Below, in pieces: positions 27,989 through 45,320 of a stretch of DNA of 49,337 bases (position 1 is the first letter of the stretch; each line of letters opens with the position of its first letter). The stretch lies in assembly GCF_004762035.2 (NCBI RefSeq), contig NZ_SIJK02000030.1, positions 1-49,337 of the forward strand. The letters are read 5' to 3'. Position numbers and translations under genes: made by a program. The notes under the pieces were generated by a model. That model saw only the letters and a program-made list of their open reading frames with translations. It had not been told where the DNA came from and did no database searches. Source of the DNA: Candidatus Chloroploca mongolica. GTDB taxonomy: Bacteria; Chloroflexota; Chloroflexia; Chloroflexales; Chloroflexaceae.

Positions 27989-28663
27989 CTATCTATTCAG
28001 GAAGCCATTTACGCCGTCCCATGTGAATAACAAGCCGAACACCAGCGCGGCCGTGATGGAGATCGGGCGATTGTAGGTTGTGAGCCATGCGGTCGCACGC
28101 TGAAGGAACGCACGGGAACGCTTTGGTGCAACTGCGACGAAAAGCACTGCGAGGATGAGCAGGATCTGTGCGAAGAAAATGTAGGCCGCGTACGCGATGA
28201 TCGCGCTGGTTTGGTCGATCTCCGCCCCGTTGATGATGGCAAGGGCCGAGAGGGTGAAGGCCCAGAGTTTCGGGCCGATCGCGATGCCCAGCGCACCCAG
28301 GCCAAAAGCCTTGAGGGCGGTGGTCTGGTCGAGTGACTGTATCCACTTTGGCGGTGGTTCGTCTGGATCCTCTTCCTTGCGCCATTTCTTGAACGAAGCG
28401 ATCAGGAGCAGGATGCCAAGGATGAGCTTCAGCGTTGCAGCCACGAGACCGCTCTCTCCCGCTGCATCGTCTGATGAAGCTGCCAGTAATGCGCCAAAGA
28501 GCAATCCCTGGGCCACGCGAATGAAGGTCATGCCGAGGACGAAGGCGGCGGCCTTGAGCAGGCCGCCCGGGCTGGCGAGCAGCAACAGGACAATGATGAG
28601 CCAGATGGGGGCCAGGACGTTGCCGAGGATCATCGGCAGCAGTTCGCCAAACAGGGCGTTCAT
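27989..28663 (-). CDS. GAP/Sap-family (LysE-superfamily) membrane transporter
   Basis: A 224-residue protein with six hydrophobic segments, split by a charged loop at about 92-112 (KKWRKEEDPDEPPPKW). N-terminal LPMILGNVLAPIWLIIVLLLLASPGG and the following FVLGMTFIRVAQGLLFG match the GAP family (related to mycobacterial Sap, linked to export of peptidoglycolipid/sulfolipid, and to the LysE superfamily). It is probably an exporter. ATG 28663 has AAGGAGA five bases upstream. It is cotranscribed with the coiled-coil membrane protein downstream. Confidence 0.82.
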   Translation of the reverse strand: MNALFGELLPMILGNVLAPIWLIIVLLLLASPGGLLKAAAFVLGMTFIRVAQGLLFGALLAASSDDAAGESGLVAATLKLILGILLLIASFKKWRKEEDPDEPPPKWIQSLDQTTALKAFGLGALGIAIGPKLWAFTLSALAIINGAEIDQTSAIIAYAAYIFFAQILLILAVLFVAVAPKRSRAFLQRATAWLTTYNRPISITAALVFGLLFTWDGVNGFLNR

Positions 28664-29886: not shown

Positions 29887-32295
29887 ATGGCTCCTTCCAA
29901 TCAGCACCCCGCCGATTGCCACGATCTGATTCGCGTCAAGGGTGCGCGCGAGAACAATCTGAAGGATGTCCATGTTGCGATTCCCAAGCGTCGGCTGACG
30001 GTCTTTACTGGGGTCTCGGGGTCGGGCAAGTCGTCGCTGGTGTTCGGTACCATCGCCGCCGAGTCACAACGCCTGATTAACGAGACCTACAGTGCGTTCG
30101 TGCAGGGTTTTATGCCAACCCTGGCGCGGCCCGAGGTTGATGTGCTGGAAGGGCTGACGACGGCGATCATCGTTGACCAAGAGCGTATGGGCGCGCATGC
30201 CCGCTCCACTGTCGGCACCGCCACCGATGCCAACGCGATGCTGCGGATCCTGTTCAGCCGCCTTGCTCAGCCGCACATTGGGCCTCCTACCGCCTACTCG
30301 TTCAACGTCCCGACGCGTACTGCCAGCGGGTCAATGAGCGTTGACAAGGGCAAAGGCGAGAAAGTCGTGGTGCGCGATGTTGTCTACCACGGCGGCATGT
30401 GCCCGCGCTGTGAGGGCATGGGCAGCATCAGCGACATCGACTTGAGCCAGCTGTACGATGCGAGCAAGTCGCTCGCTGAGGGGCCGTTCACGATTCCGGG
30501 GTATAAGGCGGGTGGTTGGGAAGTGCGGATCTACGCCGAATCGGGTTTCTTCGACCCGAACAAGCCGATCAGCCAATATACCAACCAAGAGCTCCACGAC
30601 TTTCTCTACAAGGAGCCGGTTAAAATTAAGTTCAACGGTATCAATTTGACCTACGAAGGGCTCGTTCCCCGTGTGCAGAAATCGTTTCTCTCCAAGGACA
30701 TCGAGGCGCTGCAACCGCATATCCGTGCCTTCGTGGAGCGGGCGGTGACGTTCACAATCTGTCCTGATTGCAACGGTACCCGACTCAATGAAGGGGCCCG
30801 GTCGTCCACGATCAACGGCAAGAACATTGCCGATGTCTGCGCGATGCAGATCAACGATCTGGCCGTGTGGCTGCGCGACCTGAACGAGCCGTCGGTGGCC
30901 CCGCTGCTCGCCAAGCTCCAACACCTGCTCGATTCGTTTGTGGAGATCGGGCTGGGCTACCTCAGCCTCGACCGTCCGTCGGGTACCCTGTCGGGTGGCG
31001 AGGCGCAGCGCACCAAGATGATCGGGCATCTCGGCTCGTCGCTCACCGACGTGACCTACGTCTTCGATGAGCCGACGATTGGGCTGCACCCCCACGACAT
31101 CCAGCGCATGAACAACCTGCTGCTGCGGCTGCGCGATAAGGGTAACACGGTTCTGGTCGTTGAGCACAAGCCAGAGGTGATCGCCATCGCCGACCACGTC
31201 GTTGACCTCGGTCCTGGCGCCGGTACCGCTGGTGGTGAGGTGGTTTTCGCGGGCACGGTTGACGGATTGCGGGCCAGTGGCACGCTCACCGGGCGTCATC
31301 TGGAGGACCGGGCCTCGCTGAAAGCATCGGTACGGACGCCGTCGGGAGTGCTGGCGGTGCGCGGTGCTTGCACGCACAACTTGCAGCATGTCGATGTTGA
31401 CCTTCCACTCGGCGTGCTCGTCGTCGTGACCGGCGTGGCCGGGTCGGGCAAAAGTTCGCTGATCCACGGCTCGGTGTCGGGACGGGACGGCGTGGTGGCG
31501 ATCGAGCAAGCCCAGATCCGCGGCTCGCGACGGAGCAACCCGGCGACTTACACTGGTCTGCTTGACCCTATTCGCACGGCGTTTGCGAAAGCCAATGGCG
31601 TGAAACCAGCGCTGTTCAGCGCCAACTCCGAGGGCGCCTGCCCTACCTGCAATGGTGTCGGGGTGATCTATACCGACCTGGGGATGATGGCCGGCGTCAC
31701 CACCGTCTGCGAGGAGTGCGAGGGTCGCCGGTTTCAAGCGTCGGTGCTGGAGTATCGGCTCGGCAGGCTCAACATTGCTGAGGTGCTCGACCTCACGGTC
31801 GATGAGGCGGTCGGCTTCTTCGCTGACGGCGCGGCGCGTACACCGGCTGCGCAGGCGATTCTCCGGCGTCTGGCCGACGTAGGACTGGGCTACGTGCGGC
31901 TCGGCCAACCGCTCACGACGCTATCGGGCGGCGAGCGGCAGCGGCTCAAGCTCGCAACGCACATGGGTGGCGACGCCAGGGTCTACGTGCTCGACGAGCC
32001 GACCGCCGGGCTGCACCTGGCCGACATCAAGCAGTTGCTCGATCTGCTGGATCGGCTCGTCGAAGCGGGAACATCGGTCATCGTGATCGAGCATCACCAG
32101 GCAGTGATGGCGCATGCCGACTGGATCATCGATCTCGGCCCGGGCGCGGGCCACGACGGTGGACGGATCGTCTTTGAAGGTACGCCGGCTGACCTGGTGG
32201 CGGCGCGATCAACGCTGACCGGCGAGCACCTGGCGGCATTCGTCGAGAGCCATCCGCAGGTTGCCATCCCAGGCCCTGCCGAACGCCGCATCTAG
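29887..32295 (+). CDS. Short UvrA-like ABC ATPase (UvrA2/DrrC class)
   Basis: An 802-residue tandem ABC protein. Walker A motifs TGVSGSGKSS (41-50) and TGVAGSGKSS (515-524), signatures LSGGEAQR (368-375) and LSGGERQR (about 680), and DEPTIGLHP / DEPTAGLHL Walker B regions are intact. Zinc-finger cysteines are present at 172-175 with 292-295 (CPRC, CPDC) and at 585-588 with 608-611 (CPTC, CEEC). At about 140 residues shorter than UvrA (about 940), it belongs to the UvrA-like group that includes UvrA2 and the daunorubicin-resistance protein DrrC. These bind DNA and are linked to damage tolerance or drug resistance but may not recruit UvrB. GGAGG precedes ATG 29887. Its stop overlaps the convergent kinase gene stop by four bases (CTAG). 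Confidence 0.9.
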   Translation: MAPSNQHPADCHDLIRVKGARENNLKDVHVAIPKRRLTVFTGVSGSGKSSLVFGTIAAESQRLINETYSAFVQGFMPTLARPEVDVLEGLTTAIIVDQERMGAHARSTVGTATDANAMLRILFSRLAQPHIGPPTAYSFNVPTRTASGSMSVDKGKGEKVVVRDVVYHGGMCPRCEGMGSISDIDLSQLYDASKSLAEGPFTIPGYKAGGWEVRIYAESGFFDPNKPISQYTNQELHDFLYKEPVKIKFNGINLTYEGLVPRVQKSFLSKDIEALQPHIRAFVERAVTFTICPDCNGTRLNEGARSSTINGKNIADVCAMQINDLAVWLRDLNEPSVAPLLAKLQHLLDSFVEIGLGYLSLDRPSGTLSGGEAQRTKMIGHLGSSLTDVTYVFDEPTIGLHPHDIQRMNNLLLRLRDKGNTVLVVEHKPEVIAIADHVVDLGPGAGTAGGEVVFAGTVDGLRASGTLTGRHLEDRASLKASVRTPSGVLAVRGACTHNLQHVDVDLPLGVLVVVTGVAGSGKSSLIHGSVSGRDGVVAIEQAQIRGSRRSNPATYTGLLDPIRTAFAKANGVKPALFSANSEGACPTCNGVGVIYTDLGMMAGVTTVCEECEGRRFQASVLEYRLGRLNIAEVLDLTVDEAVGFFADGAARTPAAQAILRRLADVGLGYVRLGQPLTTLSGGERQRLKLATHMGGDARVYVLDEPTAGLHLADIKQLLDLLDRLVEAGTSVIVIEHHQAVMAHADWIIDLGPGAGHDGGRIVFEGTPADLVAARSTLTGEHLAAFVESHPQVAIPGPAERRI

Positions 32296-36508: not shown

Positions 36509-37069
36509 ATGCGCGGACGACAACAAGCTCGGCGCGAAGATCGCCAACAGGAGCGTGAAACCTTCGGACGCCGTGGAACTGCGGTGCGCTACCAGGTACG
36601 CCAGCGGATGGTCGCTATCGGCGACGATTTCTGGATCGAAGATAGCGACGGCCGACGTGCGTATAAGGTTGACGGCAAGGCGCTGCGCATCCGCAAGACC
36701 TTGCTTATTGAGGATCTTCAGGGCAACCTGCAGTGTCGAGTCCAGGAGCGGATGCTCCGCGTGCGCGACACGATGGAGATCGAGGGGCCTGATGGCAAGA
36801 CCATGGCAACGGTGCGTAAGGCGCTCATCACTCCGGTGCGCGACCGCTGGACCGTGAAGATCGGCGGTGGGCCTGACCTCGAGGTACAGGGCAATATTCT
36901 CCACCACGAATATACCATCGGCGACGGCGACCGCAAGATTGCCGAGGTCTCGAAGAAGTGGTTTCGTCTGCGCGATACCTATGGTGTCGCGGTGGAGCCA
37001 GGTCAGAACGAGGGGCTGATCCTCGCGGTGGCGATTGTGATCGATATGATGGCTCACGGTGGACGATAG
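36509..37069 (+). CDS. LURP-one-related (DUF567) protein
   Basis: A 186-residue protein with a basic N-terminus (first 20 residues rich in Arg and Gln) followed by a LURP-one/Tubby-like beta-barrel: YQVRQRMVAIGDDFWIED, AYKVDGKALRIRKTLLIED, LRVRDTMEIEGPDGKTMATVRK, VQGNILHHEYTIGDGDRKIAEVSKKWFRLRDTYGV. These fit the repeating strand pattern and the final W-F-R-x-R-D-x-Y-G-V segment of the family. The fold is related to phospholipid scramblases; the bacterial function is unknown. Start ATG 36509 follows AAAGGATGAG. It is first gene of the plus-strand block that ends with the sulfatase, SulP and regulator genes; a 38-base palindrome separates it from the next gene. Confidence 0.85.
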   Translation: MRGRQQARREDRQQERETFGRRGTAVRYQVRQRMVAIGDDFWIEDSDGRRAYKVDGKALRIRKTLLIEDLQGNLQCRVQERMLRVRDTMEIEGPDGKTMATVRKALITPVRDRWTVKIGGGPDLEVQGNILHHEYTIGDGDRKIAEVSKKWFRLRDTYGVAVEPGQNEGLILAVAIVIDMMAHGGR

Positions 37070-37076
37070 AATCTTT

Positions 37077-37114
37077 CGTTGGTGGGCGGGCGAAGCTTCG
37101 CCCGCCCACCAACG
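37077..37114. repeat. Perfect 38-base palindrome between LURP-one and DUF6325-like genes
   Basis: The arms are CGTTGGTGGGCGGGCGAAG and its exact complement. It begins 8 bases after one stop and ends 22 bases before the next ATG. It could attenuate transcription or protect the upstream mRNA from decay. Confidence 0.85.
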
Positions 37115-37136
37115 ATAATGGAAATGAGGAACAGCA

Positions 37137-37964
37137 ATGCAAAGCGGACCAATCCAGGTGCTTACATTTGCGTTTGACCGCGTTGACCGGTTCGAGGGCC
37201 AGATTTTGCGTGAGCTCGACGAGTTGCGCAGCCACGGCATGATCCGGATTCTTGACCTGCAGTTTGTGCTGAAAGAGGCTGATGGCACTGTTCATACCCT
37301 CCACGAGCGGGATTTGCCCGATGGCAGTGTGAGGAGCTTCGGTACCCTGATCGACCCGCTGCTCGGCCTCGTGGCGACGGTCGAGACCTACACCGAGCAA
37401 GCACCAGGAGCCGAGACCATGCTGAGCCCCGAGCACGGGGCTGGGCTTGACCTTGATGTGATCCGTGCGGCGGTCACTGACCTTGCGCCCGGAACGGCCG
37501 CCGCGCTCGTGCTGGTAGAGCACGCCTGGGCGCTTGGTCTTGGGGCCGCAATCACTGAGGCCGGGGGCCACATGGTTACCCAGGGCTTCCTCACCCGCAA
37601 TGCGTTGCTCGCCGTTGGTCAAGAGCTCAACGCGATCGTTGAGGCCGAGGTCGCCATCGAGCGGGCGGCTGCGGCGCGTGGTGCGGCACTGCTTGATACC
37701 CTTACCACGCTGACTGCCGCCGAAGAAGTTCAGCGCGAGGCGATGGCCTCGGCGATTACCACTGTCGTTGGCGTCGAAGCGTTCCGTTCCACCGTCGCCG
37801 CCGAGGCCGTGCGCGCCCTCGTCGTCGCCGGCTTGCTCACCGAGGCGGATGCCCCTGAGGCAATCGACATCCTGGTCGACGCCGAACTGATCAGCGAAGC
37901 TACGCTTGATGAGGCGAGTGCCACCGCCGATGCCATCCTCGCTGAGCTCAGCCAGGACTGGTAA
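37137..37964 (+). CDS. DUF6325/DUF1269-like protein with SHOCT-like C-terminus
   Basis: A 275-residue protein. The N-terminal ~150 residues match the DUF6325/DUF1269 group: GPIQVLTFAFDRVDRFEGQI, then LRSHGMIRILDLQFVLKEADG, and ALVLVEHAWALGLGAAI with GGHMVTQGFL. The C-terminal 120 residues are Ala-rich helices ending in two SHOCT-like modules (VRALVVAGLLTEADAPEAIDILVDAELISEATLDEA). The function is unknown; homologues often neighbour stress or membrane proteins. GAGGAACAGC precedes the ATG. It sits 28 bases upstream of the maturase gene, likely in one transcript. Confidence 0.82.
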   Translation: MQSGPIQVLTFAFDRVDRFEGQILRELDELRSHGMIRILDLQFVLKEADGTVHTLHERDLPDGSVRSFGTLIDPLLGLVATVETYTEQAPGAETMLSPEHGAGLDLDVIRAAVTDLAPGTAAALVLVEHAWALGLGAAITEAGGHMVTQGFLTRNALLAVGQELNAIVEAEVAIERAAAARGAALLDTLTTLTAAEEVQREAMASAITTVVGVEAFRSTVAAEAVRALVVAGLLTEADAPEAIDILVDAELISEATLDEASATADAILAELSQDW

Positions 37965-37992
37965 GCCGCGCTGTCGTATAGAAGGAGGAGGC

Positions 37993-39384
37993 ATGGTCGC
38001 CCTCAGCACAGGTGCCAATCCCACCGCGCCGGTCACGTCCAACGGGGCGCGACCGTCCGCGTTTCACGTCCTTGCCAAGCCCACCGGGGCGATCTGCAAC
38101 CTCGACTGCGCCTATTGCTTCTTCCTCGCCAAAGAGCAACTCTATCCCGGTTCCCGGTTCCGCATGGCCGACGATGTCTTGGAGGCCTACATCGGCCAGT
38201 TGATCGCCGGTCACGCCAGTGACCACGTCACGATTGCCTGGCAGGGCGGCGAGCCGACCCTGATGGGTCTCGACTTCTTCCGTCACGCCATGGCGATCGC
38301 CGAGCGCCACCGCCGCCCAGGGATGCGCTTCGAGCACACTATTCAGACCAACGGCACGCTGCTCGACGACGAGTGGGGTGCCTTCTTCAAGGAACACGGC
38401 TTCCTGGTCGGCATTAGCCTCGACGGCCCCGCCCACCTGCACGACATCTATCGCTATGATAAGGGCGGCAAGCCGACGTTCGACAAGGTCATGCGCGGCG
38501 TGCGCTTGCTCCAACAGCATGGCGTCGACTTCAATGTGCTCACCACCGTCAACAGCGCCAACGCCGAGCATCCGCTCGAGGTCTATCGCTTCTTGCGTGA
38601 CGAAGTTGGCACCGACTGGATGCAGTTCATCCCGGTGGTCGAACGGATCAACACCGACGGGCGGGCGCTGATCCAGGAGGGCGATACCGTCTCGGAGCGC
38701 TCGGTAGGGGCCGAGCAGTTCGGGCGCTTCTTAACGACGATTTTCGATGAATGGGTGCGGAACGACGTGGGCAAGGTCTTTGTGCAGACCTTCGAGGCAG
38801 CCGCTCGTAGCTGGCTCGGTCTTAGCCCGCGGATGTGTGTCTTTGACCAGACCTGTGGCCTCGGCCCGGCCCTCGAACACAACGGCGACCTCTACACCTG
38901 CGATCACTTTGTTGAGCCAAAGCACAAGCTCGGCAACATCAAAGACGTGCCAATGATCGAACTGGTGAGTTCGGATCAGATGAAGAAGTTCGGCCAGGAC
39001 AAACGCGATACGCTCCCACAATACTGTCGGCAATGCCCGGTGCGCTTTGCCTGCAACGGCGAATGCCCAAAGAACCGCTTCATCCTGACCCCCGATGGCG
39101 AACCGGGGCTAAACTACCTCTGCGCGGGCTACAAAGCCTTTTTCACTCATATCGATCAGCCGTTGCGGATCATCGCCGGCTTGCTTCGTCAGGGGCGCAG
39201 CGCCGCCGAAGTCATGCCGATCCTCGCGCGCGCCGACGCCGAGTTTGCGCGCCTCCTGGCAAAAGCAGGGCGCAACGACCCCTGCCCCTGCGGGAGTGGG
39301 CGCAAGCTCAAGCACTGTCACGGGGCGCAGCCTGCTCGGGCGAAGACCGGGGCGGACTCGCCCACTAATACCATTTACCGTTGA
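37993..39384 (+). CDS. Anaerobic sulfatase-maturating enzyme (radical SAM/SPASM) with SEC-C tail
   Basis: A 463-residue radical SAM enzyme that oxidises the active-site Cys or Ser of sulfatases to formylglycine. The [4Fe-4S] motif CNLDCAYC (C35, C39, C42) is followed by WQGGEPTLMGLDFF and the SPASM cluster cysteines (CVFDQTCG, YTCDHFVEPKHKLGN, YCRQCPVRFACNGECPKNRF). A 20-residue SEC-C zinc motif (NDPCPCGSGRKLKHCHG) is added at about 432-448. In other proteins this motif binds zinc and mediates contacts with SecB or the ribosome, and it could dock the enzyme onto nascent sulfatase; that is inference. The start at 37993 has GAAGGAGGAG directly upstream. The sulfatase 900 bases downstream has the matching CxAxR target. 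Confidence 0.93.
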   Translation: MVALSTGANPTAPVTSNGARPSAFHVLAKPTGAICNLDCAYCFFLAKEQLYPGSRFRMADDVLEAYIGQLIAGHASDHVTIAWQGGEPTLMGLDFFRHAMAIAERHRRPGMRFEHTIQTNGTLLDDEWGAFFKEHGFLVGISLDGPAHLHDIYRYDKGGKPTFDKVMRGVRLLQQHGVDFNVLTTVNSANAEHPLEVYRFLRDEVGTDWMQFIPVVERINTDGRALIQEGDTVSERSVGAEQFGRFLTTIFDEWVRNDVGKVFVQTFEAAARSWLGLSPRMCVFDQTCGLGPALEHNGDLYTCDHFVEPKHKLGNIKDVPMIELVSSDQMKKFGQDKRDTLPQYCRQCPVRFACNGECPKNRFILTPDGEPGLNYLCAGYKAFFTHIDQPLRIIAGLLRQGRSAAEVMPILARADAEFARLLAKAGRNDPCPCGSGRKLKHCHGAQPARAKTGADSPTNTIYR

Positions 39385-39470
39385 GGAGGCCGCATTGTCA
39401 CTCTGAGTACCACATGGCCTGTGGGCCAGTGATGCCGTGAGCAACCAGGGTGTTGCACCGGCCCGCCCAT

Positions 39471-39654
39471 GTCACCCCGAACGAACGTGAGGGGTCTTCC
39501 ATGACGATCAGGGCAGATTCCTCACTGCGCCTGCGGCTTCGTTCGGAATGACCGCAGAGGCGTTGCGATCCGACCATGAGGTTTGTTTCTCAGGAGCGAA
39601 GCGAAGGGTCTCGGGCGTCCCGACGACACAGATGCTTCGCTGCGCTCAGCATGA
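39471..39654. repeat. Two copies of a GCGAAGCGAAGGG / CTTCGCTGCGCTCAGCATGAC inverted-repeat family
   Basis: First unit 39471-39552: GTCACCCCGAACGAACGTGAGG paired with CTTCGTTCGGAATGAC. Second unit about 39590-39654: CAGGAGCGAAGCGAAGGG paired with CTTCGCTGCGCTCAGCATGAC. A related fragment (GAAGCATCTCGGGTG) lies at about 36383. The 39385-39790 gap contains no gene. Confidence 0.7.
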
Positions 39655-39790
39655 CAATGCGGCACCTTCAAGCGGAATTGGTATAACCTATCGTTTCCGT
39701 GACCGACAATTGCCTATCCAGCATCATTTGCCTGGCCCAACCGAATGCTATGTGTCTGATAACGCCGCTGCACGCGGCAGGAGATCTTTT

Positions 39791-40033
39791 ATGAGTTTTC
39801 AGGATTGGATGCTTTGGATCCTATCGGTCACGCTGCTCAGCATCTACATCGCCGCCGTGTTTACCGTCTGCCGTCTCACCTTCCAGAAGGGCTACGGGAT
39901 ACTCGGCATCATCGGCATCTTCTTCCCCATCCTCTGGCTGATCGGCGCGATCCTGCCAGCCAAGCCGGGCTCGCGATTCGCACTCCAGCAAGAACTGGCG
40001 ATGAAACGCCAAGCTGAGCAAGCGTCACGCTAA
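39791..40033 (+). CDS. Small two-pass membrane protein
   Basis: An 80-residue protein with two hydrophobic segments (about 6-27 and 37-58) joined by a short polar turn (RLTFQKGYG) and followed by a basic/Gln-rich tail (SRFALQQELAMKRQAEQ). AGGAGA seven bases before ATG 39791 supports the start. It lies between the sulfatase maturase and the sulfatase on the same strand, but about 400 bases from the former, so it may have its own promoter. It resembles the short membrane proteins with a WLIGAILPAKPGS ending but no characterised family is recognised. Confidence 0.78.
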   Translation: MSFQDWMLWILSVTLLSIYIAAVFTVCRLTFQKGYGILGIIGIFFPILWLIGAILPAKPGSRFALQQELAMKRQAEQASR

Positions 40034-40061
40034 CGGCACTGCCTGCGCGGGCGCAGGGCTC

Positions 40062-40176
40062 ATGCAAAGTCCCAGTAGGGTTAGATAGCATCCGCAGATT
40101 ACGCAGATTACGCAGATGCGGAAGCCCTAATCTGCGTAATCTGCGTAATCTGCGGACGATCAGAAGGACTTTGCAT
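40062..40176. repeat. GCAGATTAC element, complete copy in inverse orientation to 29664-29778
   Basis: Exact 11-base terminal inverted repeats, ATGCAAAGTCC at 40062-40072 and GGACTTTGCAT at 40166-40176, enclose CCAGTAGGGTTAGATAG and the CCGCAGATTACGCAGATTAC / AATCTGCGTAATCTGCGG hairpin. The reverse complement matches the 29664-29778 copy throughout. Confidence 0.85.
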
Positions 40177-40284
40177 CAACCCTGTGCGTAGGGGCAAGCT
40201 CTGGTAGGGAAGCGCCCACACGGAACTATTTACTGCCCGTTTTTGAATGTGTCTTAAGTCTATCCGGAAAGTGAGGACTTGCAG

Positions 40285-41823
40285 ATGACCGACAAGCAAC
40301 CGAATATCCTGCTCATCTGGGGCGACGATATCGGCATCACCAACCTGAGTTGTTACAGCGATGGGTTGATGGGCTATCGTACGCCCAACATTGACCGCAT
40401 TGCCAACGAGGGCATGCGTTTTACCGACAGTTACGGTCAGCAGAGTTGCACCGCGGGCCGCTCGGCTTTTATCACCGGCCAGAGTCCCTATCGCACCGGG
40501 CTCACCAAGGTGGGCATGCCGGGGGCGGATAAGGGCATCCAGCCCGAGGATCCCACGATCGCCGAGTTGCTCAAGCCGCTGGGCTACGCCACCGGTCAGT
40601 TCGGCAAGAACCACCTCGGCGACCGCAACAAGTACCTGCCCACCGCCCGTGGCTTTGACGAGTTCTTTGGCAATCTCTATCACCTCAACGCCGAAGAGGA
40701 GCCAGAGCACGTGGACTACCCGCCCGAGGCGGACTTTCCTAACTTCACGCAGATGTTCGGGCCACGCGGCATGATCCGCTCGTGGGCCACCGACGAGGAC
40801 GACCCGACCGAGCATCCGCGTTGGGGTCGCGTCGGCAAACAGCGCATTGAGGAAGTCGGCCCGTTGACCCGCAAGCGCATGGAGACCTGCGACGTCGAGT
40901 TCGTTGAGGCTACCCAGGACTTTATCAAACGCGCCCATGCCGACGACAAGCCCTTCTTCGCCTGGCTCAATACCACCTGGATGCACTTCCGCGTCCATCC
41001 ACCGGCCCACGTGCTTGGCCAGGCCGGGCGCTGGCAGTCCGAGTACCACGATGTCATGGTCGAACACGACAAACACGTGGGCCGCGTGCTCGACCTGCTC
41101 GACGAGCTTGGCATCGCTGACAATACGATCGTGATGTACTCGACCGATAACGGCCCGCACATGAACACCTGGCCCGACGGCGCGATGACCCCCTTCCGCA
41201 ACGAGAAGAACTCGAACTGGGAGGGTGCCTATCGCATCCCGATGCTGGTGCGCTGGCCTGCCGAGATCAAGGCAGGCACGATCTCCAACGAGATCATCAG
41301 CCTCGAGGACTGGCTACCCACGCTGCTCGCCGCCGCCGGTGAGCCAGAGATCGGGGCCAAGCTCAAGGAGGGCCACCAGGTCGGCGACACGACGTACAAA
41401 GTTCATCTGGACGGCTACAACTTCCTGCCACACTTCACTGGCGAGGAGGCAAAGGGGCCGCGCCAAGGCTTCTTCTACTTCTCGGACGATGGCGACCTGG
41501 TGTCGCTGCGTTACGACAACTGGAAGGTGGTCTTCGCCGAGCAGCGCATGGCCGGAACCGTCCAGATCTGGGCCGAGCCGTTCGTCTTCCTGCGCATCCC
41601 CAAGATCTTCAACCTGCGCACTGACCCGTATGAACGGGCGGACATCACCTCGAACACCTACTGGGACTGGATGATCGACCGGGCCTACATGATCTACGCG
41701 GCCCAGTTCATCGTGCAGCAGTTCCTCGCGAGCTTCATGGCCTTCCCGCCGCGCATGAAGGCGGCCAGCTTCGGTATCGATCAGGTGATGGCGAAGATGG
41801 AAGAGGCGTTGAGCAATAACTAA
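40285..41823 (+). CDS. Cys-type sulfatase (arylsulfatase family)
   Basis: A 512-residue hydrolase of sulfate esters. The formylglycine motif is C55-T-A-G-R59 (SCTAGRSAFITGQ), the CxAxR form matured by anaerobic radical-SAM enzymes, one of which is encoded upstream. Metal ligands Asp14-Asp15 (IWGDDIG) and the later STDNGPH with Asp-Asn, plus GKNHLGD and the Lys in NEKNSNWEGAYRIP, are in place. No signal peptide is visible, so the enzyme is predicted to be cytoplasmic, unusual for polysaccharide sulfatases. The C-terminus has a hydrophobic patch (MIYAAQFIVQQFLASFMAF). GTGAGGA lies seven bases upstream of ATG 40285; a TTG at 40279 is less likely. A hairpin follows the stop. Confidence 0.93.
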   Translation: MTDKQPNILLIWGDDIGITNLSCYSDGLMGYRTPNIDRIANEGMRFTDSYGQQSCTAGRSAFITGQSPYRTGLTKVGMPGADKGIQPEDPTIAELLKPLGYATGQFGKNHLGDRNKYLPTARGFDEFFGNLYHLNAEEEPEHVDYPPEADFPNFTQMFGPRGMIRSWATDEDDPTEHPRWGRVGKQRIEEVGPLTRKRMETCDVEFVEATQDFIKRAHADDKPFFAWLNTTWMHFRVHPPAHVLGQAGRWQSEYHDVMVEHDKHVGRVLDLLDELGIADNTIVMYSTDNGPHMNTWPDGAMTPFRNEKNSNWEGAYRIPMLVRWPAEIKAGTISNEIISLEDWLPTLLAAAGEPEIGAKLKEGHQVGDTTYKVHLDGYNFLPHFTGEEAKGPRQGFFYFSDDGDLVSLRYDNWKVVFAEQRMAGTVQIWAEPFVFLRIPKIFNLRTDPYERADITSNTYWDWMIDRAYMIYAAQFIVQQFLASFMAFPPRMKAASFGIDQVMAKMEEALSNN

Positions 41824-41829
41824 ACTATG

Positions 41830-41856
41830 GTGTGGGAGAACCAGGTTCTCCCACAC
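41830..41856 (+). terminator. Hairpin after the sulfatase stop
   Basis: Perfect 13-base arms GTGTGGGAGAACC around a single A, six bases after the stop, followed by TCCCTTAATCT. It is weak as a terminator for lack of a T-run. It ends 11 bases before the HAD gene start, so it may be an attenuator or processing site. Confidence 0.45.
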
Positions 41857-41867
41857 TCCCTTAATCT

Positions 41868-42809
41868 ATGACAACTCACAACCTTGCCAGTTGGAACGAC
41901 ACGCCGACCTGCCAGGCGATCCTCAATTTCGTGGACGCCGTCACCGACGAAACCAGTTCGTGCTACGTGCCGCCCGCCGAGCGGGTCGCCGTCTTCGACA
42001 ACGATGGCACGCTCTGGTGTGAAAAGCCGCTCTACGCGCAACTCGATCTGTTGCTACGCAAGTTGGTCACGCAGGCCGAGCAAGACCCGGCCCTGCGTGC
42101 GCGACAACCGTGGCAGGCAGCGTATCACAAAGACTACGCCTGGCTGGGGGGGGCGATCACGCGCTATTACCAGGGTGATCACACCGACGTGAGGCTCATG
42201 CTTAACGGCATCCTCGCCCTCGCTGATGGCCGGGACGTCGAAGAGGTCGAGGCCGAGGCTGCGGCCTTTGTCTCCCATGAGCGCAACCCCACCCTCGGCC
42301 GTACCTATGCCGCAGTGGTCTATCAACCGATGCTCGAGTTGCTGCGTTTTCTCGAAAGCCACGGCTTCACCTGTTATATCGTCTCGGGGAGCGGGCGCGA
42401 GTTTCTGCGTGGCATCGCCGAGGCACTCTACGCCATCCCCCGTGAGCGCGTGATCGGCAGCACGGTGGCCTATGCCTATGAAGTGCGTGACGGTGTCGGA
42501 ACGATCGTGCAGAAGGCCGAGCTTGATGTGGTTGACGACGGGCCAAATAAGCCCATCCAGATCTGGGGTGTCGTTGGGCGCCGCCCGATCCTTGCCGCAG
42601 GCAACTCCAACGGCGACCTGGCGATGCTCCAGTACGCGGGCGACCTTGCGCTGCCGGCGCTGCGCCTCCTCCTGCTGCACGACGATGCCGAGCGCGAGTT
42701 CGCCTATACAGCCGGTGCCGAGCACGCCCTGGAAGCGGCCCATACCCAGGGCTGGACAGTGATCAGCATGCGCGACGACTGGCGTCAGGTCTTCCCGGAC
42801 GTCGGGTAA
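41868..42809 (+). CDS. HAD-superfamily phosphatase (phosphoserine-phosphatase-like)
   Basis: A 313-residue soluble hydrolase. Motif I is VAVFDNDGTLW, with nucleophile Asp44 and acid/base Asp46. Motif II is the Ser in CYIVSGSGREF (about 172), and motif IV is GNSNGDLAML with the metal Asp. A helical C1-type cap (about 60-150, with YYQGDHTDVRLMLNG) sits between motifs I and II. Overall it resembles the SerB-like/haloacid dehalogenase-like proteins of about 300 residues often found beside sulfatases and SulP permeases. The substrate is unknown. The ATG at 41868 follows the sulfatase hairpin closely, without a strong ribosome site, so translation may depend on that structure. Confidence 0.87.
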   Translation: MTTHNLASWNDTPTCQAILNFVDAVTDETSSCYVPPAERVAVFDNDGTLWCEKPLYAQLDLLLRKLVTQAEQDPALRARQPWQAAYHKDYAWLGGAITRYYQGDHTDVRLMLNGILALADGRDVEEVEAEAAAFVSHERNPTLGRTYAAVVYQPMLELLRFLESHGFTCYIVSGSGREFLRGIAEALYAIPRERVIGSTVAYAYEVRDGVGTIVQKAELDVVDDGPNKPIQIWGVVGRRPILAAGNSNGDLAMLQYAGDLALPALRLLLLHDDAEREFAYTAGAEHALEAAHTQGWTVISMRDDWRQVFPDVG

Positions 42810-42818
42810 CTATCTTTG

Positions 42819-42881
42819 CCTGGGAGCGAGGGCGTCCTGCCCTCGGGGAGCCTTCGAGGGCGGGACGCCCTCGCGCCCAGG
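42819..42881 (+). terminator. Long imperfect hairpin between HAD and SulP genes
   Basis: The arms CCTGGGAGCGAGGGCGTCCTG and CGGGACGCCCTCGCGCCCAGG pair over about 27 bases with two mismatches. It starts nine bases after the HAD stop. There is no T-run. Confidence 0.4.
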
Positions 42882-42965
42882 ATTACCCGACATGTGAGCA
42901 CGTACGATGTCAGCAGCTAATTGGGCGTAAATCCTGCACGCAACGGTTTTTGGAAAGCGAGAACC

Positions 42966-44651
42966 ATGAATCTTCCGTTCCGGGGTCGGCAGTTCTTCAA
43001 CCGCGCCACCGTCCGCGAGGATCTCAGCGCCGGTCTGGTGCTGGGCATCCAGAGCATCCCCGGTGGGTTGGCCGCGGGCCTGCTTGCGCTGGTCAATCCA
43101 GTCTACGGCCTCTACAGCTACATGACCGGCGTGATCACGGGCGCGTTCTTCACCAGCTCGGTCTTTATGTCTGTGCAGGCCACCAGTGCAATGGCGCTGA
43201 TCATCGCCAGCGTGCCCCTGGTGACGCAGGCGTCGGATCCCAACGTCCCGCTCTTCACATTGGCCCTGTTGACCGGAGTGCTCATGCTCGCGGCGGGCTT
43301 GTTCAAGCTTGGCCAGTTGGTGCGCTTCGTGCCCAACTCGGTGATGGTCGGCTTCGTCAACGCCGTCGCCCTGCTGATCATCCTGGGGCAACTGGATGAC
43401 TTCACCGGCTACAATAGCTCGGGGCCGAACCGTGTGGTCAGAACTTTCGATCTCCTGCGCAACATGGAGCAGGTTCATGTGCCGACCCTGGCGGCCGGGG
43501 TGCTGACGATCATTCTGATCCTGACCCTCGAGCGGACGCAACTGAAGGCGCTGGGCATGGTGATCGCGCTCTTCTTCGTCTCGCTGATCGTCCCCCTGGC
43601 TGGTGCCGAGCAGATTGCTCTGGCGAGGGATATTGCCGACATCCCCAGTTCGCTGCCAATGCCCGTGCTGCCGTCGCTGGCGCTCGTGCCCGTGCTGCTC
43701 ATCCCCGCGCTCTCGCTCGCTTTTGTCGGGTTGGTGCAGGGCGCGAGCATCAGCGCGTCAGTTGCCAACCCCGATGGCCGTTTCCCGAATGCATCGGGCG
43801 ACTTCGTTGGGCAAGGGGCAGCGGGCATTGTCGCCGGGGTGCTTCAGGGCATGCCGGTTGGTGCGTCGATGTCGGCCACGTCGCTGGTCATCGGGGCGGG
43901 TGCCCGTTCACGCCTGGCCAACATCGTGGCCGGCATCGTGATCGCCCTGGGCATCCTGCTCTTCGGGCGGTTGGTGGGCCTGATAGCGATGCCCGCCCTG
44001 GCGGGACTGCTGATCGTGATCGGTTTCCGTACGCTCAGGCTCAGCCAGGTGGTGACGGTCTGGAAGACCGGGGTGGTTCAGCAGACCGTGATGCTCTTGA
44101 CGTTTAGCGCCGGGCTGCTGGTTCCGTTGCAATACGCCGTGTTGATGGGCGTGGGCCTGGCGGTGCTGCTGTACGTGTTCCAGCAGTCGAACCGGGTGCG
44201 GGTGGTAACCCTGAAGATCGAGCCGGGGCAGTTCCCCGTCGAGGGTGAGCCACCAGCAGAGGTGCCTGGTCGCCAGGTGACCATTCTGGTTCCCTACGGC
44301 AGCCTCTTCTTCGCCGCCGCCCCGGTCTTCAACGCGCAACTTCCGACGGTCACAGAAAGCTCACGCAACGCCGTCGTGATCCTGGTGCTGCGGGGCGAGA
44401 CAGAGTTAGGCAGCACCTTCATGGATGTAATTGCCCGCTATGCCGAGGCGCTGCGCGGGCAGAATAGTCGGCTGATGCTGTCAGGGGTGGCACCCTCCGT
44501 CGAGATTCAGCTCGAGCGGACGGGGCTGTTGTATGCCCTCGGTCGAAAAAATATTTTCATCGTGGACGAACGTGTTGGTCACGCGCTCCAAGAGGCGATG
44601 GACGCCGCCGAGCGTTGGATTGACGCACAACCGTTGGCAGGCAGAACGTGA
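42966..44651 (+). CDS. SulP/SLC26 anion permease with STAS domain
   Basis: A 561-residue membrane transporter of the sulfate permease family, exchanging or co-transporting sulfate, bicarbonate or other anions. The N-terminal LSAGLVLGIQSIPGGLAAGLLALVNPVYGLY is the family's first-repeat signature. Ten or more hydrophobic segments follow, including the SVANPDGRFPNASGDFVGQG and GMPVGASMSATSL region, then a cytoplasmic STAS domain (about 430-550; VTILVPYGSLFFAAAPVF). The start ATG 42966 follows GGAAAGCGAG; an in-frame start at 42921 is inferior. In this context sulfate is a reasonable substrate, but SulP homologues are also bicarbonate transporters. It ends 33 bases upstream of the NarL-type regulator, likely in one transcript. 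Confidence 0.9.
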   Translation: MNLPFRGRQFFNRATVREDLSAGLVLGIQSIPGGLAAGLLALVNPVYGLYSYMTGVITGAFFTSSVFMSVQATSAMALIIASVPLVTQASDPNVPLFTLALLTGVLMLAAGLFKLGQLVRFVPNSVMVGFVNAVALLIILGQLDDFTGYNSSGPNRVVRTFDLLRNMEQVHVPTLAAGVLTIILILTLERTQLKALGMVIALFFVSLIVPLAGAEQIALARDIADIPSSLPMPVLPSLALVPVLLIPALSLAFVGLVQGASISASVANPDGRFPNASGDFVGQGAAGIVAGVLQGMPVGASMSATSLVIGAGARSRLANIVAGIVIALGILLFGRLVGLIAMPALAGLLIVIGFRTLRLSQVVTVWKTGVVQQTVMLLTFSAGLLVPLQYAVLMGVGLAVLLYVFQQSNRVRVVTLKIEPGQFPVEGEPPAEVPGRQVTILVPYGSLFFAAAPVFNAQLPTVTESSRNAVVILVLRGETELGSTFMDVIARYAEALRGQNSRLMLSGVAPSVEIQLERTGLLYALGRKNIFIVDERVGHALQEAMDAAERWIDAQPLAGRT

Positions 44652-44684
44652 GACCGATCGAATATGAGCAGCGCGGAGGAGTTT

Positions 44685-45320
44685 ATGACCAACCCACCTA
44701 TTCGGGTGCTCTTAGTTGACGATCACGCTGTGGTGCGGGGAGGCCTGCGCTACTTCCTCGCAAGCTCCGACAACATTGAGATTGTCGGCGAGGGCGCAAA
44801 CGGTAGCGAAGCGCTCGAGCTCGCCGCGCAACTCGCGCCCGACGTGGTCATTATGGACATGATGATGCCGGTGATGGATGGGCTTACCGCCACGCGGGAG
44901 CTACGGCGGCGCTTTCCGCAGGTACGTGTCCTGGCACTGACCAGCTTCGGCGAAGGCGAGATCGTCCAGCAGGCGTTGCAAGCCGGGGCGATCGGCTATC
45001 TCCTGAAGGACGCCCAGGGCAGCGATCTGGTCGCAGCCATTCGTGCGGCCTTCGCCGGTACACCGGTGCTCAGCCCCGATGTTACTAGGGCTTTGGTGAG
45101 CGCCCTGAATGCCCCGCCAATCCCCGGTGGCGACCTCTCCGAGCGCGAACGCGAGGTGCTGCGTCTGATGGTTGCCGGCTTGAGCAACGAGCAGATCGCC
45201 GAGCAACTCTTCATCAGTCGCAACACCGTACGCCATCACGTCCACAACATCCTCAGCAAGCTGTCGGTCGCCAACCGTACCGAAGCCGTTGGCCTGGCAG
45301 TCCAACACAAGGTAGTGTAA
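44685..45320 (+). CDS. NarL/FixJ-family response regulator (orphan)
   Basis: A 211-residue response regulator. The receiver domain has Asp12-Asp13 (LLVDDH), phosphoacceptor Asp58 (VVIMDMMMP), Thr in ALTSFGE and Lys in LLKDAQG. The C-terminal LuxR-type HTH (about 148-211) reads [47 protein letters not shown] sits four bases before ATG 44685, so I prefer it to ATG 44664. No histidine kinase is adjacent; the HisKA_3 kinase at 32292-36050 is the obvious candidate partner in the window. It is last gene of the plus-strand block and is followed by a strong hairpin. Confidence 0.92.

What the first reader, a model, noticed from the sequence alone, without database searches (positions are those of the whole stretch)
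36509..45320. Candidate cytoplasmic sulfate-ester system with maturase, sulfatase, HAD phosphatase and SulP
A maturase and a CTAGR sulfatase without signal peptide occur with a HAD phosphatase, an anion permease and membrane/LURP-one proteins. A cytoplasmic sulfatase would need its substrate imported or made inside, unlike secreted polysaccharide sulfatases. The MFS, GAP/Sap, coiled-coil and CsbD genes at 24.7-28.7 kb may be part of a wider stress-linked neighbourhood. I cannot say whether this grouping has been described.
Basis: partly seen in the sequence, partly recalled or inferred. Interest (0 to 1): 0.65.

Follow-up and report, generated by a model that had tools for sequence, protein, structure and literature searches.

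The report
Portable cytoplasmic sulfatase module with maturase
A green phototrophic bacterium carries a compact gene cluster that makes and activates a sulfate-removing enzyme inside the cell, and relatives of this cluster turn up in many bacteria and some archaea, which suggests a shared but still unexplained use for removing sulfate from molecules.

Summary
At 36.5-45.3 kb, on one strand, lie a LURP-one protein, an unnamed protein (g2), a radical-SAM sulfatase maturase, a CTAGR sulfatase without signal peptide (the only sulfatase found in the genome), a HAD phosphatase, a SulP permease and a NarL-type regulator. The genome is a Candidatus Chloroploca relative. The grouping is not strain-specific: all seven genes recur in another genus of the family, and parts of the set recur in many of 80 loci (13 phyla) that encode sulfatases 65-97% identical. 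Of these 80, 40 have an oxygen-dependent maturase (FGE), 20 an anaerobic one, none both, 20 neither. A HAD directly behind the sulfatase agrees with it in having or lacking a signal peptide in 36 of 36 loci, though few independent switches underlie this. Sulfur nutrition looks unlikely here: no PAPS/APS-reductase-family gene was found, while a PAPS synthase with sulfotransferases was. I read it as a portable module that desulfates an anionic ester, here in the cytoplasm, with SulP moving substrate or sulfate; the substrate is unknown. Of the genes at 24.7-28.7 kb only the Sap-like one recurs near the cluster. Paper searches found no description of this grouping.

The parts
27989..28663 (-). 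SfLAP / 'Sap, sulfolipid-1-addressing' membrane protein; possible outer member of the cluster
   Evidence: PF11139 100.6 bits; homologue at the upstream end of the cluster in L036 and between maturase and sulfatase in L040, and beside the sensor kinase in L113
32292..36119 (-). Sensor histidine kinase with Reg_prop propeller, Y_Y_Y, GAF and HisKA_3; divergent from the cluster
   Evidence: Pfam; kept next to the cluster in a second genus, 74% identity (L113), and in L032 and L034; pairing with the regulator at 44664 is inferred
36509..37069 (+). LURP-one-related (LOR) protein
   Evidence: PF04525 61 bits; in 8 of 80 sulfatase loci, Chloroflexota and Methanobacteriota
37137..37964 (+). g2: 275-aa protein without Pfam family; N-terminal half remotely related to DUF1269, helical tail
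   Evidence: no Pfam hit; hhalign to a DUF1269 set 98.4%, E 1e-14, residues 1-149; model pLDDT 68, no PDB match with E<=0.001
37993..39384 (+). radical-SAM anaerobic sulfatase maturase with C-terminal SEC-C motif
   Evidence: TIGR03942 480 bits over cut-off 349; PDB relatives 4k36/4k37 anSME
39791..40033 (+). 80-aa membrane ORF, poorly conserved; probably not part of the module
   Evidence: ATG behind GGAG, partial in two sister species; no Pfam family over cut-off
40285..41823 (+). FGly-type sulfatase, CTAGR at residues 55-59, no signal peptide
   Evidence: PF00884 177 bits; sole PF00884 match of the genome; CTAGR in 80 of 81 rows, 1 gapped there; model pLDDT 85, Z 39.3 to 7aj0 and 37.4 to human steroid sulfatase
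41868..42809 (+). HAD phosphatase (DNDGT motif), 44 nt behind the sulfatase
   Evidence: PF12710 54.8 bits; closest solved chain 4ovy, E 1.7e-70, named only as a HAD hydrolase
42966..44651 (+). SulP anion permease with STAS domain, divergent clade
   Evidence: PF00916 179 bits, PF01740; TIGR00815 below cut-off; 66-70% identity to SulP beside the sulfatase in L036, L037, L040, L042
44664..45320 (+). NarL/LuxR-type response regulator
   Evidence: PF00072 + PF00196; kept at the end of the cluster in L032, L034 and L113

Best explanation
A horizontally spreading desulfation module. The radical-SAM maturase turns Cys55 of the sulfatase into formylglycine without oxygen (the host genus is described as supposedly obligately anaerobic). 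The sulfatase then hydrolyses an anionic organic sulfate ester in the cytoplasm. The HAD phosphatase, encoded 44 nt behind it and probably on the same transcript, works on the same pool of molecules in the same compartment (inferred). The SulP permease moves the anions: it brings in the ester or, because this cell seems unable to reduce sulfate, expels the freed sulfate, possibly as an exchange (inferred). LURP-one and g2 are lipid- or membrane-facing accessories (inferred). The propeller sensor kinase and the NarL-type regulator at the two ends probably control the cluster (inferred). The purpose is more likely remodelling, detoxifying or gaining carbon from the ester than sulfur nutrition. 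Shown here: gene content, lack of a signal peptide, intact catalytic motif, conservation, at most one maturase type per locus, no PF01507 match. Not shown: substrate, activity, transport direction, operon.
For: Gene identities. Sole PF00884 match of the genome. Patchy distribution, as expected of transfer: 3 of 201 genomes drawn from the phylum have the sulfatase at E<=1e-100, yet relatives at 65-97% identity occur in 80 loci (a capped list) of 13 phyla including archaea. Linkage by profile search: FGE in 40, HAD in 30 (38 by blastp), rSAM maturase in 20, SBF transporter in 18, SulP in 13 of 80 loci; in the 44 loci with full flanks, hits at 0-5 kb versus 5-10 kb are FGE 30:0, HAD 21:0, SBF 9:1, SulP 6:2. 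FGE and rSAM never occur together (0 of 80; 20 have neither), and the type needs at least 4 changes on the best sulfatase tree. HAD within 300 nt behind the sulfatase: signal-peptide state agrees in 36 of 36 loci, 26 both without and 10 both with. HAD is rare in the phylum: 6 of 201 genomes at E<=1e-20, and the 3 sulfatase genomes are among them, though in G205 on another contig. Whole cluster kept in another genus (L113). No PF01507 match.
Against: The compartment match rests on few independent switches: 1-2 contrasting pairs on the trees, sign test p 0.5 to 1. Widening the distance limit to 700 nt adds one mismatch (L060), and HADs further off or on the other strand mismatch in L050, L051, L088, L092, L101 and in second copies of L079 and L086. 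Many relatives show no HAD (42 to 50 of 80 by the two methods) and no SulP (67 of 80) in the stretch held, so neither seems essential. The transport and lipid roles are inferred from families only. The SulP scores below the NCBIfam sulfate permease cut-off. 20 of 80 loci have no maturase within the stretch, some of them with full flanks.
Confidence: 0.5

Rival explanations
1. Sulfur scavenging: sulfate esters are imported and desulfated so that the sulfate can be assimilated, as with known bacterial alkyl/arylsulfatases.
For: Maturase, sulfatase and anion permease together; SBF symporters, a family that carries organic anions (recalled), recur beside the sulfatase in 18 of 80 loci. Chloroflexus aurantiacus has a sulfate reduction operon with cysH (PMC3150298, passages).
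Against: The window's genome has no PF01507 (CysH, CysD) match while 14 of 14 controls do, and only one ATP-sulfurylase, the fused one.
Confidence: 0.15
2. Turnover or editing of home-made sulfated glycans or lipids: the cell makes PAPS and sulfates a glycoconjugate, and the cytoplasmic sulfatase removes sulfate from precursors or breakdown products.
For: Fused ATP-sulfurylase/APS kinase, glycosyltransferases and a sulfotransferase sit together on contig C72, with two more sulfotransferases 10 and 34 kb on. Sap/SfLAP by the cluster. A second LURP-g2 pair in the genome is followed by a DUF1269-diacylglycerol-kinase fusion.
Against: No linkage of the sulfatase cluster to C72 is known; I did not test whether other sulfatase genomes have sulfotransferases. 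Related sulfatase-HAD pairs carry signal peptides in other bacteria.
Confidence: 0.25
3. A formylglycine enzyme of the same fold whose main substrate is a phosphate or phosphonate ester, with the HAD removing the second phosphate.
For: FGly phosphonate/phosphodiester hydrolases exist (recalled); repeated partnership with a phosphatase.
Against: Nearest solved relatives by sequence and by fold are sulfatases; the NCBIfam phosphoric/sulfuric ester hydrolase PehA model scores 53 bits against a cut-off of 900.
Confidence: 0.07
4. Chance grouping or strain-specific island of unrelated genes.
For: Gene order varies between phyla and some members are missing in most loci.
Against: Near/far contrast and recurrence over 13 phyla; whole set kept in another genus.
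Confidence: 0.03

Closest known systems
Type I formylglycine sulfatases (SulfAtlas family S1)
   Same: PF00884 domain, CTAGR site, invariant catalytic positions across 37 rows; best fold matches PsFucS1 7aj0 Z 39.3, human steroid sulfatase 1p49 Z 37.4, arylsulfatase A about Z 37
   Different: Only 27-29% identity to these three; no signal peptide; subfamily could not be assigned
Pseudomonas aeruginosa arylsulfatase AtsA (S1_4; entry listed in PMC5066984, passages)
   Same: Cys-type enzyme without secretion (recalled for AtsA); a review places Cys-type sulfatases typically in the cytosol (PMC3920027, passage)
   Different: 24% identity, Z 30.6, rank 43 of the 50 rows shown; no PF01507 match in this genome, so hardly a sulfur-starvation supply line
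Anaerobic sulfatase-maturating enzyme (anSME, TIGR03942)
   Same: Over the equivalog cut-off; relatives 4k36/4k37
   Different: Carries a C-terminal SEC-C motif, found by a strict pattern in 17 of 22 maturases of these loci, the window's included
FGE-sulfatase pairs of aerobes, e.g. M. tuberculosis Rv0711/Rv0712 (recalled)
   Same: Sulfatase beside its own maturase
   Different: There oxygen-dependent FGE; here radical SAM; loci of this one sulfatase clade have the one or the other, or neither
Polysaccharide utilisation loci with sulfatases
   Same: Propeller sensor kinase resembles sensors of such loci (recalled)
   Different: No glycosidase or Sus-type uptake pair among the cluster's proteins, sulfatase not exported

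Membership tests
Formylglycine sulfatase (S1) | PF00884 domain over cut-off | tested here: met
   177 bits, cut-off 25
Formylglycine sulfatase (S1) | C-x-[PA]-x-R site at the nucleophile | tested here: met
   CTAGR at 55-59; 80 of 81 aligned rows, 1 row gapped there
Formylglycine sulfatase (S1) | Metal and catalytic residues (roles recalled): D14, D15, K108, H110, H234, D288, N289, K308 | tested here: met
   all invariant in 37 rows; roles not checked residue by residue against a structure
Formylglycine sulfatase (S1) | Cys converted to formylglycine; sulfate ester hydrolysis | not testable with these tools
   needs mass spectrometry and assay
Arylsulfatase AtsA subfamily S1_4 | closest to P. 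aeruginosa AtsA among S1 subfamilies | tested here: inconclusive
   1hdh is listed at Z 30.6, rank 43 of 50, against Z 39.3 for 7aj0; no subfamily profiles at hand
Anaerobic sulfatase maturase (anSME) | TIGR03942 over cut-off; radical SAM plus SPASM | tested here: met
   480 bits versus 349; PF04055, PF13186
HAD superfamily phosphatase | PF12710 over cut-off, DxDGT motif | tested here: met
   54.8 bits versus 27; DNDGT
HAD-IB subfamily (TIGR01488/01490) | score over subfamily cut-off | tested here: not met
   21.7 versus 45 and 24.5 versus 98.3 bits
SulP/SLC26 permease | PF00916 and STAS over cut-off | tested here: met
   179 versus 23.2 and 27.6 versus 22.6 bits
Sulfate permease subfamily TIGR00815 | score over cut-off | tested here: not met
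   199 versus 380 bits; sulfate as substrate is therefore not shown
LURP-one-related (LOR) | PF04525 over cut-off | tested here: met
   61 versus 24.5 bits
DUF1269 (for g2) | PF06897 over cut-off | tested here: not met
   no hit; remote relation by profile comparison only
Sulfur assimilation pathway in this genome | PAPS/APS reductase or CysD (PF01507) | tested here: not met
   0 matches in G000, 14 of 14 controls positive; atypical reductases were not searched for

The most novel reading that the evidence does not exclude
The sulfatase, its maturase and the HAD form a general 'sulfo/phospho-ester editing' module of the cell envelope, shared by bacteria and archaea: sulfatase and phosphatase together strip sulfate and phosphate from one amphiphilic molecule (a sulfated lipid or lipid-linked glycan), on the inner face of the membrane in most hosts and outside in others. 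LURP-one, DUF1269-like, SfLAP and DUF202-type proteins would handle the lipid, and SulP would discharge the sulfate. The module swaps its maturase with the oxygen habits of the host.
Probability: 0.2. Interest if true: 0.75.

Novelty: new variant of a known kind. Interest (0 to 1): 0.5.

Why it matters
Cytoplasmic sulfatases are known, but their natural substrates mostly are not (recalled). A gene set that recurs around one tight sulfatase clade in 13 phyla gives a defined, testable system: which molecule carries the sulfate, why a phosphatase often goes with it, and why an organism that apparently cannot reduce sulfate keeps it. It also gives a natural comparison of two unrelated maturases serving the same sulfatase clade.

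Tried and rejected
Strain-specific island: rejected. Small membrane ORF as a conserved member: rejected. Sulfur nutrition as main role: disfavoured. SulfAtlas subfamily assignment: not possible; the passages of the SulfAtlas paper that I saw do not treat location ('cytoplasm' and 'signal peptide' occur 0 times). Fold of g2: model too weak, no match with E<=0.001.

Fold search of the sulfatase: its first 20 rows lie within 4 Z units and are all S1 sulfatases with different substrates, so it does not tell the substrate. Seven paper searches bore on the grouping or on such sulfatases; the listings, capped, showed no paper that describes it. Searches were on the organism and its sulfur metabolism. 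Of the papers I saw passages or the abstract, none whole.

Corrections made on the way: the wrong one of two HAD copies stood for Variovorax (L079, L086); one search uses the right one. In one search the membrane ORF was cut short; one search repeats it whole. began the maturase one codon before its ATG. The first gene-picking run missed genes in G+C-rich loci; searches replaced it. HAD counts differ by method: 30 of 80 loci by profile with a coverage limit, 38 of 80 by blastp (my count); FGE is 40 by profile and 41 by clustering. The signal-peptide calls come from a rule of my own (positive N-end, hydrophobic run, small residues after it), not from SignalP. L097 was left unclassified in the tree count, and L175 and L176, which the rule called signal-less, were left out there too. 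For L061 the start was read because the hit was a fragment. The five Catellatospora sulfatases have long charged N-ends and an unsure start. The 300-nt limit for 'directly behind' was set after seeing the data; at 700 nt there is one mismatch (L060).
Full report
What is there. The window is contig C84 of a 6.3 Mb, 99.84% complete genome. Its sulfatase is 97% identical to that of Candidatus Chloroploca asiatica, and two further genomes of its own genus carry it, so it is a Chloroploca-type anoxygenic phototroph. A paper on that genus describes a monoderm-type envelope, gas vesicles, supposed obligate anaerobiosis and a soda-lake habitat (PMC6180586, passages read). From 36509 to 45320, all on the + strand, lie LURP-one, g2, radical-SAM sulfatase maturase, sulfatase, HAD phosphatase, SulP and a NarL-type regulator. 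A propeller-type sensor kinase runs the other way from 36119 to 32292.

The sulfatase. It is the only PF00884 match in the genome. CTAGR lies at residues 55-59, and in 37 aligned relatives the residues that I recall as metal and acid-base residues of S1 sulfatases are invariant. The protein starts five residues before the core, so no signal peptide is possible. The model (pLDDT 85) matches the 50 solved sulfatase entries shown at Z 30-39, best PsFucS1, then human steroid sulfatase and arylsulfatase A. This confirms the fold but does not tell the substrate.

Distribution. Within the phylum the gene is rare: 3 of 201 drawn genomes at E<=1e-100. These 80 loci carry 50 genus-level labels (family or title where no genus is given) and fall in 13 phyla: Chloroflexota, Actinomycetota, Pseudomonadota, Cyanobacteriota, Acidobacteriota, Planctomycetota, Myxococcota, Thermodesulfobacteriota, Nitrospirota, Bacillota and three archaeal ones. 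The patchiness and the mixing of phyla in the tree point to transfer between lineages. Some records are metagenome bins whose names may be wrong (L095).

Neighbourhood. I built profile models of recurrent neighbours and searched all 80 loci. Loci with each family: FGE maturase 40, HAD 30, DUF202 23, rSAM maturase 20, SBF transporter 18, DUF1622 15, SulP 13, HdeD/DUF308 13, a second longer sulfatase 10, DUF1269 9, LURP-one 8, methyltransferase 6, DUF1254 6, g2 4, AI-2E 4, SfLAP 2, DUF389 2, propeller kinase 2, the window's MFS 1, CsbD 0, coiled coil 0. A blastp count gives HAD in 38 of 80. As a control within the same loci, hits in the nearer and the further 5 kb of the 44 loci with full flanks were FGE 30:0, HAD 21:0, DUF202 10:3, SBF 9:1, HdeD 9:2, DUF1622 8:1, SulP 6:2, second sulfatase 5:2, rSAM 4:1, methyltransferase 3:0, DUF1254 3:0, LURP-one 2:0, DUF1269 2:1, DUF389 1:0, AI-2E 0:1, MFS 0:1. 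The main neighbours thus cluster around the sulfatase rather than being spread over the stretch.

All six plus the regulator and the kinase stand together in the window, in L032 and L034 (same genus) and in L113 (another genus of the family, 70-88% protein identity by gene). LURP-one, rSAM maturase, sulfatase and SulP also stand together in L035, L036, L037 and L040 (further Chloroflexota), with HAD in L035 and g2 in L037. A Methanolobus archaeon (L045) has LURP-one, DUF1269, rSAM maturase, sulfatase and SBF. The SulP of L036, L037, L040 and of a Desulfocapsa (L042) is 66-70% identical to the window's; one SulP of L035 is 47% identical, and those beside other sulfatase branches 24-29%. L158 (genome G239) holds FGE, SulP, SBF, DUF1254, the second sulfatase, g2, HdeD, DUF1269 and LURP-one within 20 kb without this sulfatase clade.

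Maturase swap. FGE needs oxygen and the radical-SAM enzyme does not (established knowledge). No locus has both (0 of 80), 60 have one, and 20 have neither in the stretch held, some with short and some with full flanks. On the best sulfatase tree, a quick one, the type needs at least four changes (labels there 41 FGE and 19 rSAM plus the window, from the clustering). I take this as evidence that the cysteine is really converted in vivo and that the module adapts to the oxygen habits of its host. 17 of 22 rSAM maturases, the window's included, carry a SEC-C tail by a strict pattern.

HAD and compartment. In 30 sulfatase genomes that I picked from the 80 for taxonomic spread, HAD homologues occur in 24, one match in 17 of these and two or three (pieces counted) in 7. 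Crossed, 18 of the 30 have it in the fetched sulfatase stretch, 6 have it elsewhere and 6 have none. One copy in some 5 Mb would be expected in a 21-kb stretch in well under 1% of genomes (my arithmetic). A second set came from 150 genomes of the order of L108, 22 of which have the sulfatase (29 loci). Where the HAD lies on the same strand within 300 nt behind the sulfatase, both lack a signal peptide in 26 loci and both have one in 10 loci, with no mismatch; the window makes it 27 (L165, a repeat of L108, not counted). Against this: the limit was chosen after seeing the data, at 700 nt L060 is a mismatch, HADs placed elsewhere are mixed, and the trees allow only one or two independent contrasts, so the match is not statistically independent evidence (sign test p 0.5 on the HAD tree and 1 on the sulfatase tree). 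I take it as a hint, not proof, that the two enzymes work in the same compartment on the same pool.

Sulfur metabolism of the host. PF01507, which covers PAPS/APS reductases and CysD, has no match in the genome, although the same search finds it in 14 of 14 control genomes. One ATP-sulfurylase exists, fused to an APS kinase. It lies in a region with glycosyltransferases and a sulfotransferase about 5 kb away, and two more sulfotransferases follow on the same contig. In Chloroflexus aurantiacus a similar fused enzyme (Caur_2113) is listed with a sulfotransferase of the next locus number (Caur_2114), apart from a reduction operon with cysH (PMC3150298, passages). The simplest reading is that this Chloroploca relative kept sulfation and lost, or never had, the known reduction route. 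An unusual reductase as in Methanothermococcus (PMC10322725, abstract) is not excluded. So sulfate freed by the sulfatase probably does not feed cysteine synthesis, and sulfate esters could be made inside the cell.

Other hints. g2 is remotely related to DUF1269 (hhalign 98.4%, E 1e-14). The genome has a second LURP-one/g2 pair on contig C131, followed by a DUF1269-diacylglycerol kinase fusion and a DUF1622 protein, without a sulfatase. Together with SfLAP near the cluster this suggests, but does not show, a link to membrane lipids.

Conclusion. It is best described as a portable desulfation module built on a known enzyme class: a new variant of a known kind. The substrate and the reason for the HAD and SulP partnership are open. 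Seven paper searches on the grouping or such sulfatases showed no description of it; most subscription journals and all preprints are missing from that library.

Noticed in passing
L155 7998-11366 (own genome, contig C131): Second LURP-one/g2 pair (78% and 54-55% identity to the window's), followed by a DUF1269-diacylglycerol kinase fusion and a DUF1622 protein; no sulfatase there.
   Followed up: partly
L195 8978-16167 and own contig C72 to about 181 kb: Fused ATP-sulfurylase/APS kinase with glycosyltransferases and three sulfotransferases, in a genome without a PF01507 match: a likely sulfated-glycan locus.
   Followed up: partly
window 39747-39916: About 170 bases, with the first half of the small membrane ORF, are absent from the matching place in Ca. 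Chloroploca asiatica (L032); only 38 of 80 residues match there.
   Followed up: partly
L064, L070, L074, L100: Four mycobacterial loci carry two tandem copies of the sulfatase (64-68% identity to the window's); HAD follows the second.
   Followed up: no
L158 3174-19900 (genome G239): A stretch of under 20 kb with FGE, SulP, SBF, DUF1254/1214, a second type of sulfatase, a chloride channel, g2, HdeD, DUF1269, LURP-one and a family-15 glycosidase, but not this sulfatase clade.
   Followed up: partly
L095: Record titled Bifidobacterium breve (a MAG) whose sulfatase and HAD group with Mycobacterium; probably a misbinned contig.
   Followed up: no
L117, L118, L119 (genome G030): One draft genome (7% contamination) has three full sulfatase copies and one partial one, with FGE beside one copy and rSAM maturase beside others, on separate contigs.
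   Followed up: no
window 29887-32295: ABC-type ATPase (UvrA-like by recall) between the redoxin gene and the sensor kinase; it breaks the SfLAP-kinase neighbourhood that is direct in L113.
   Followed up: no
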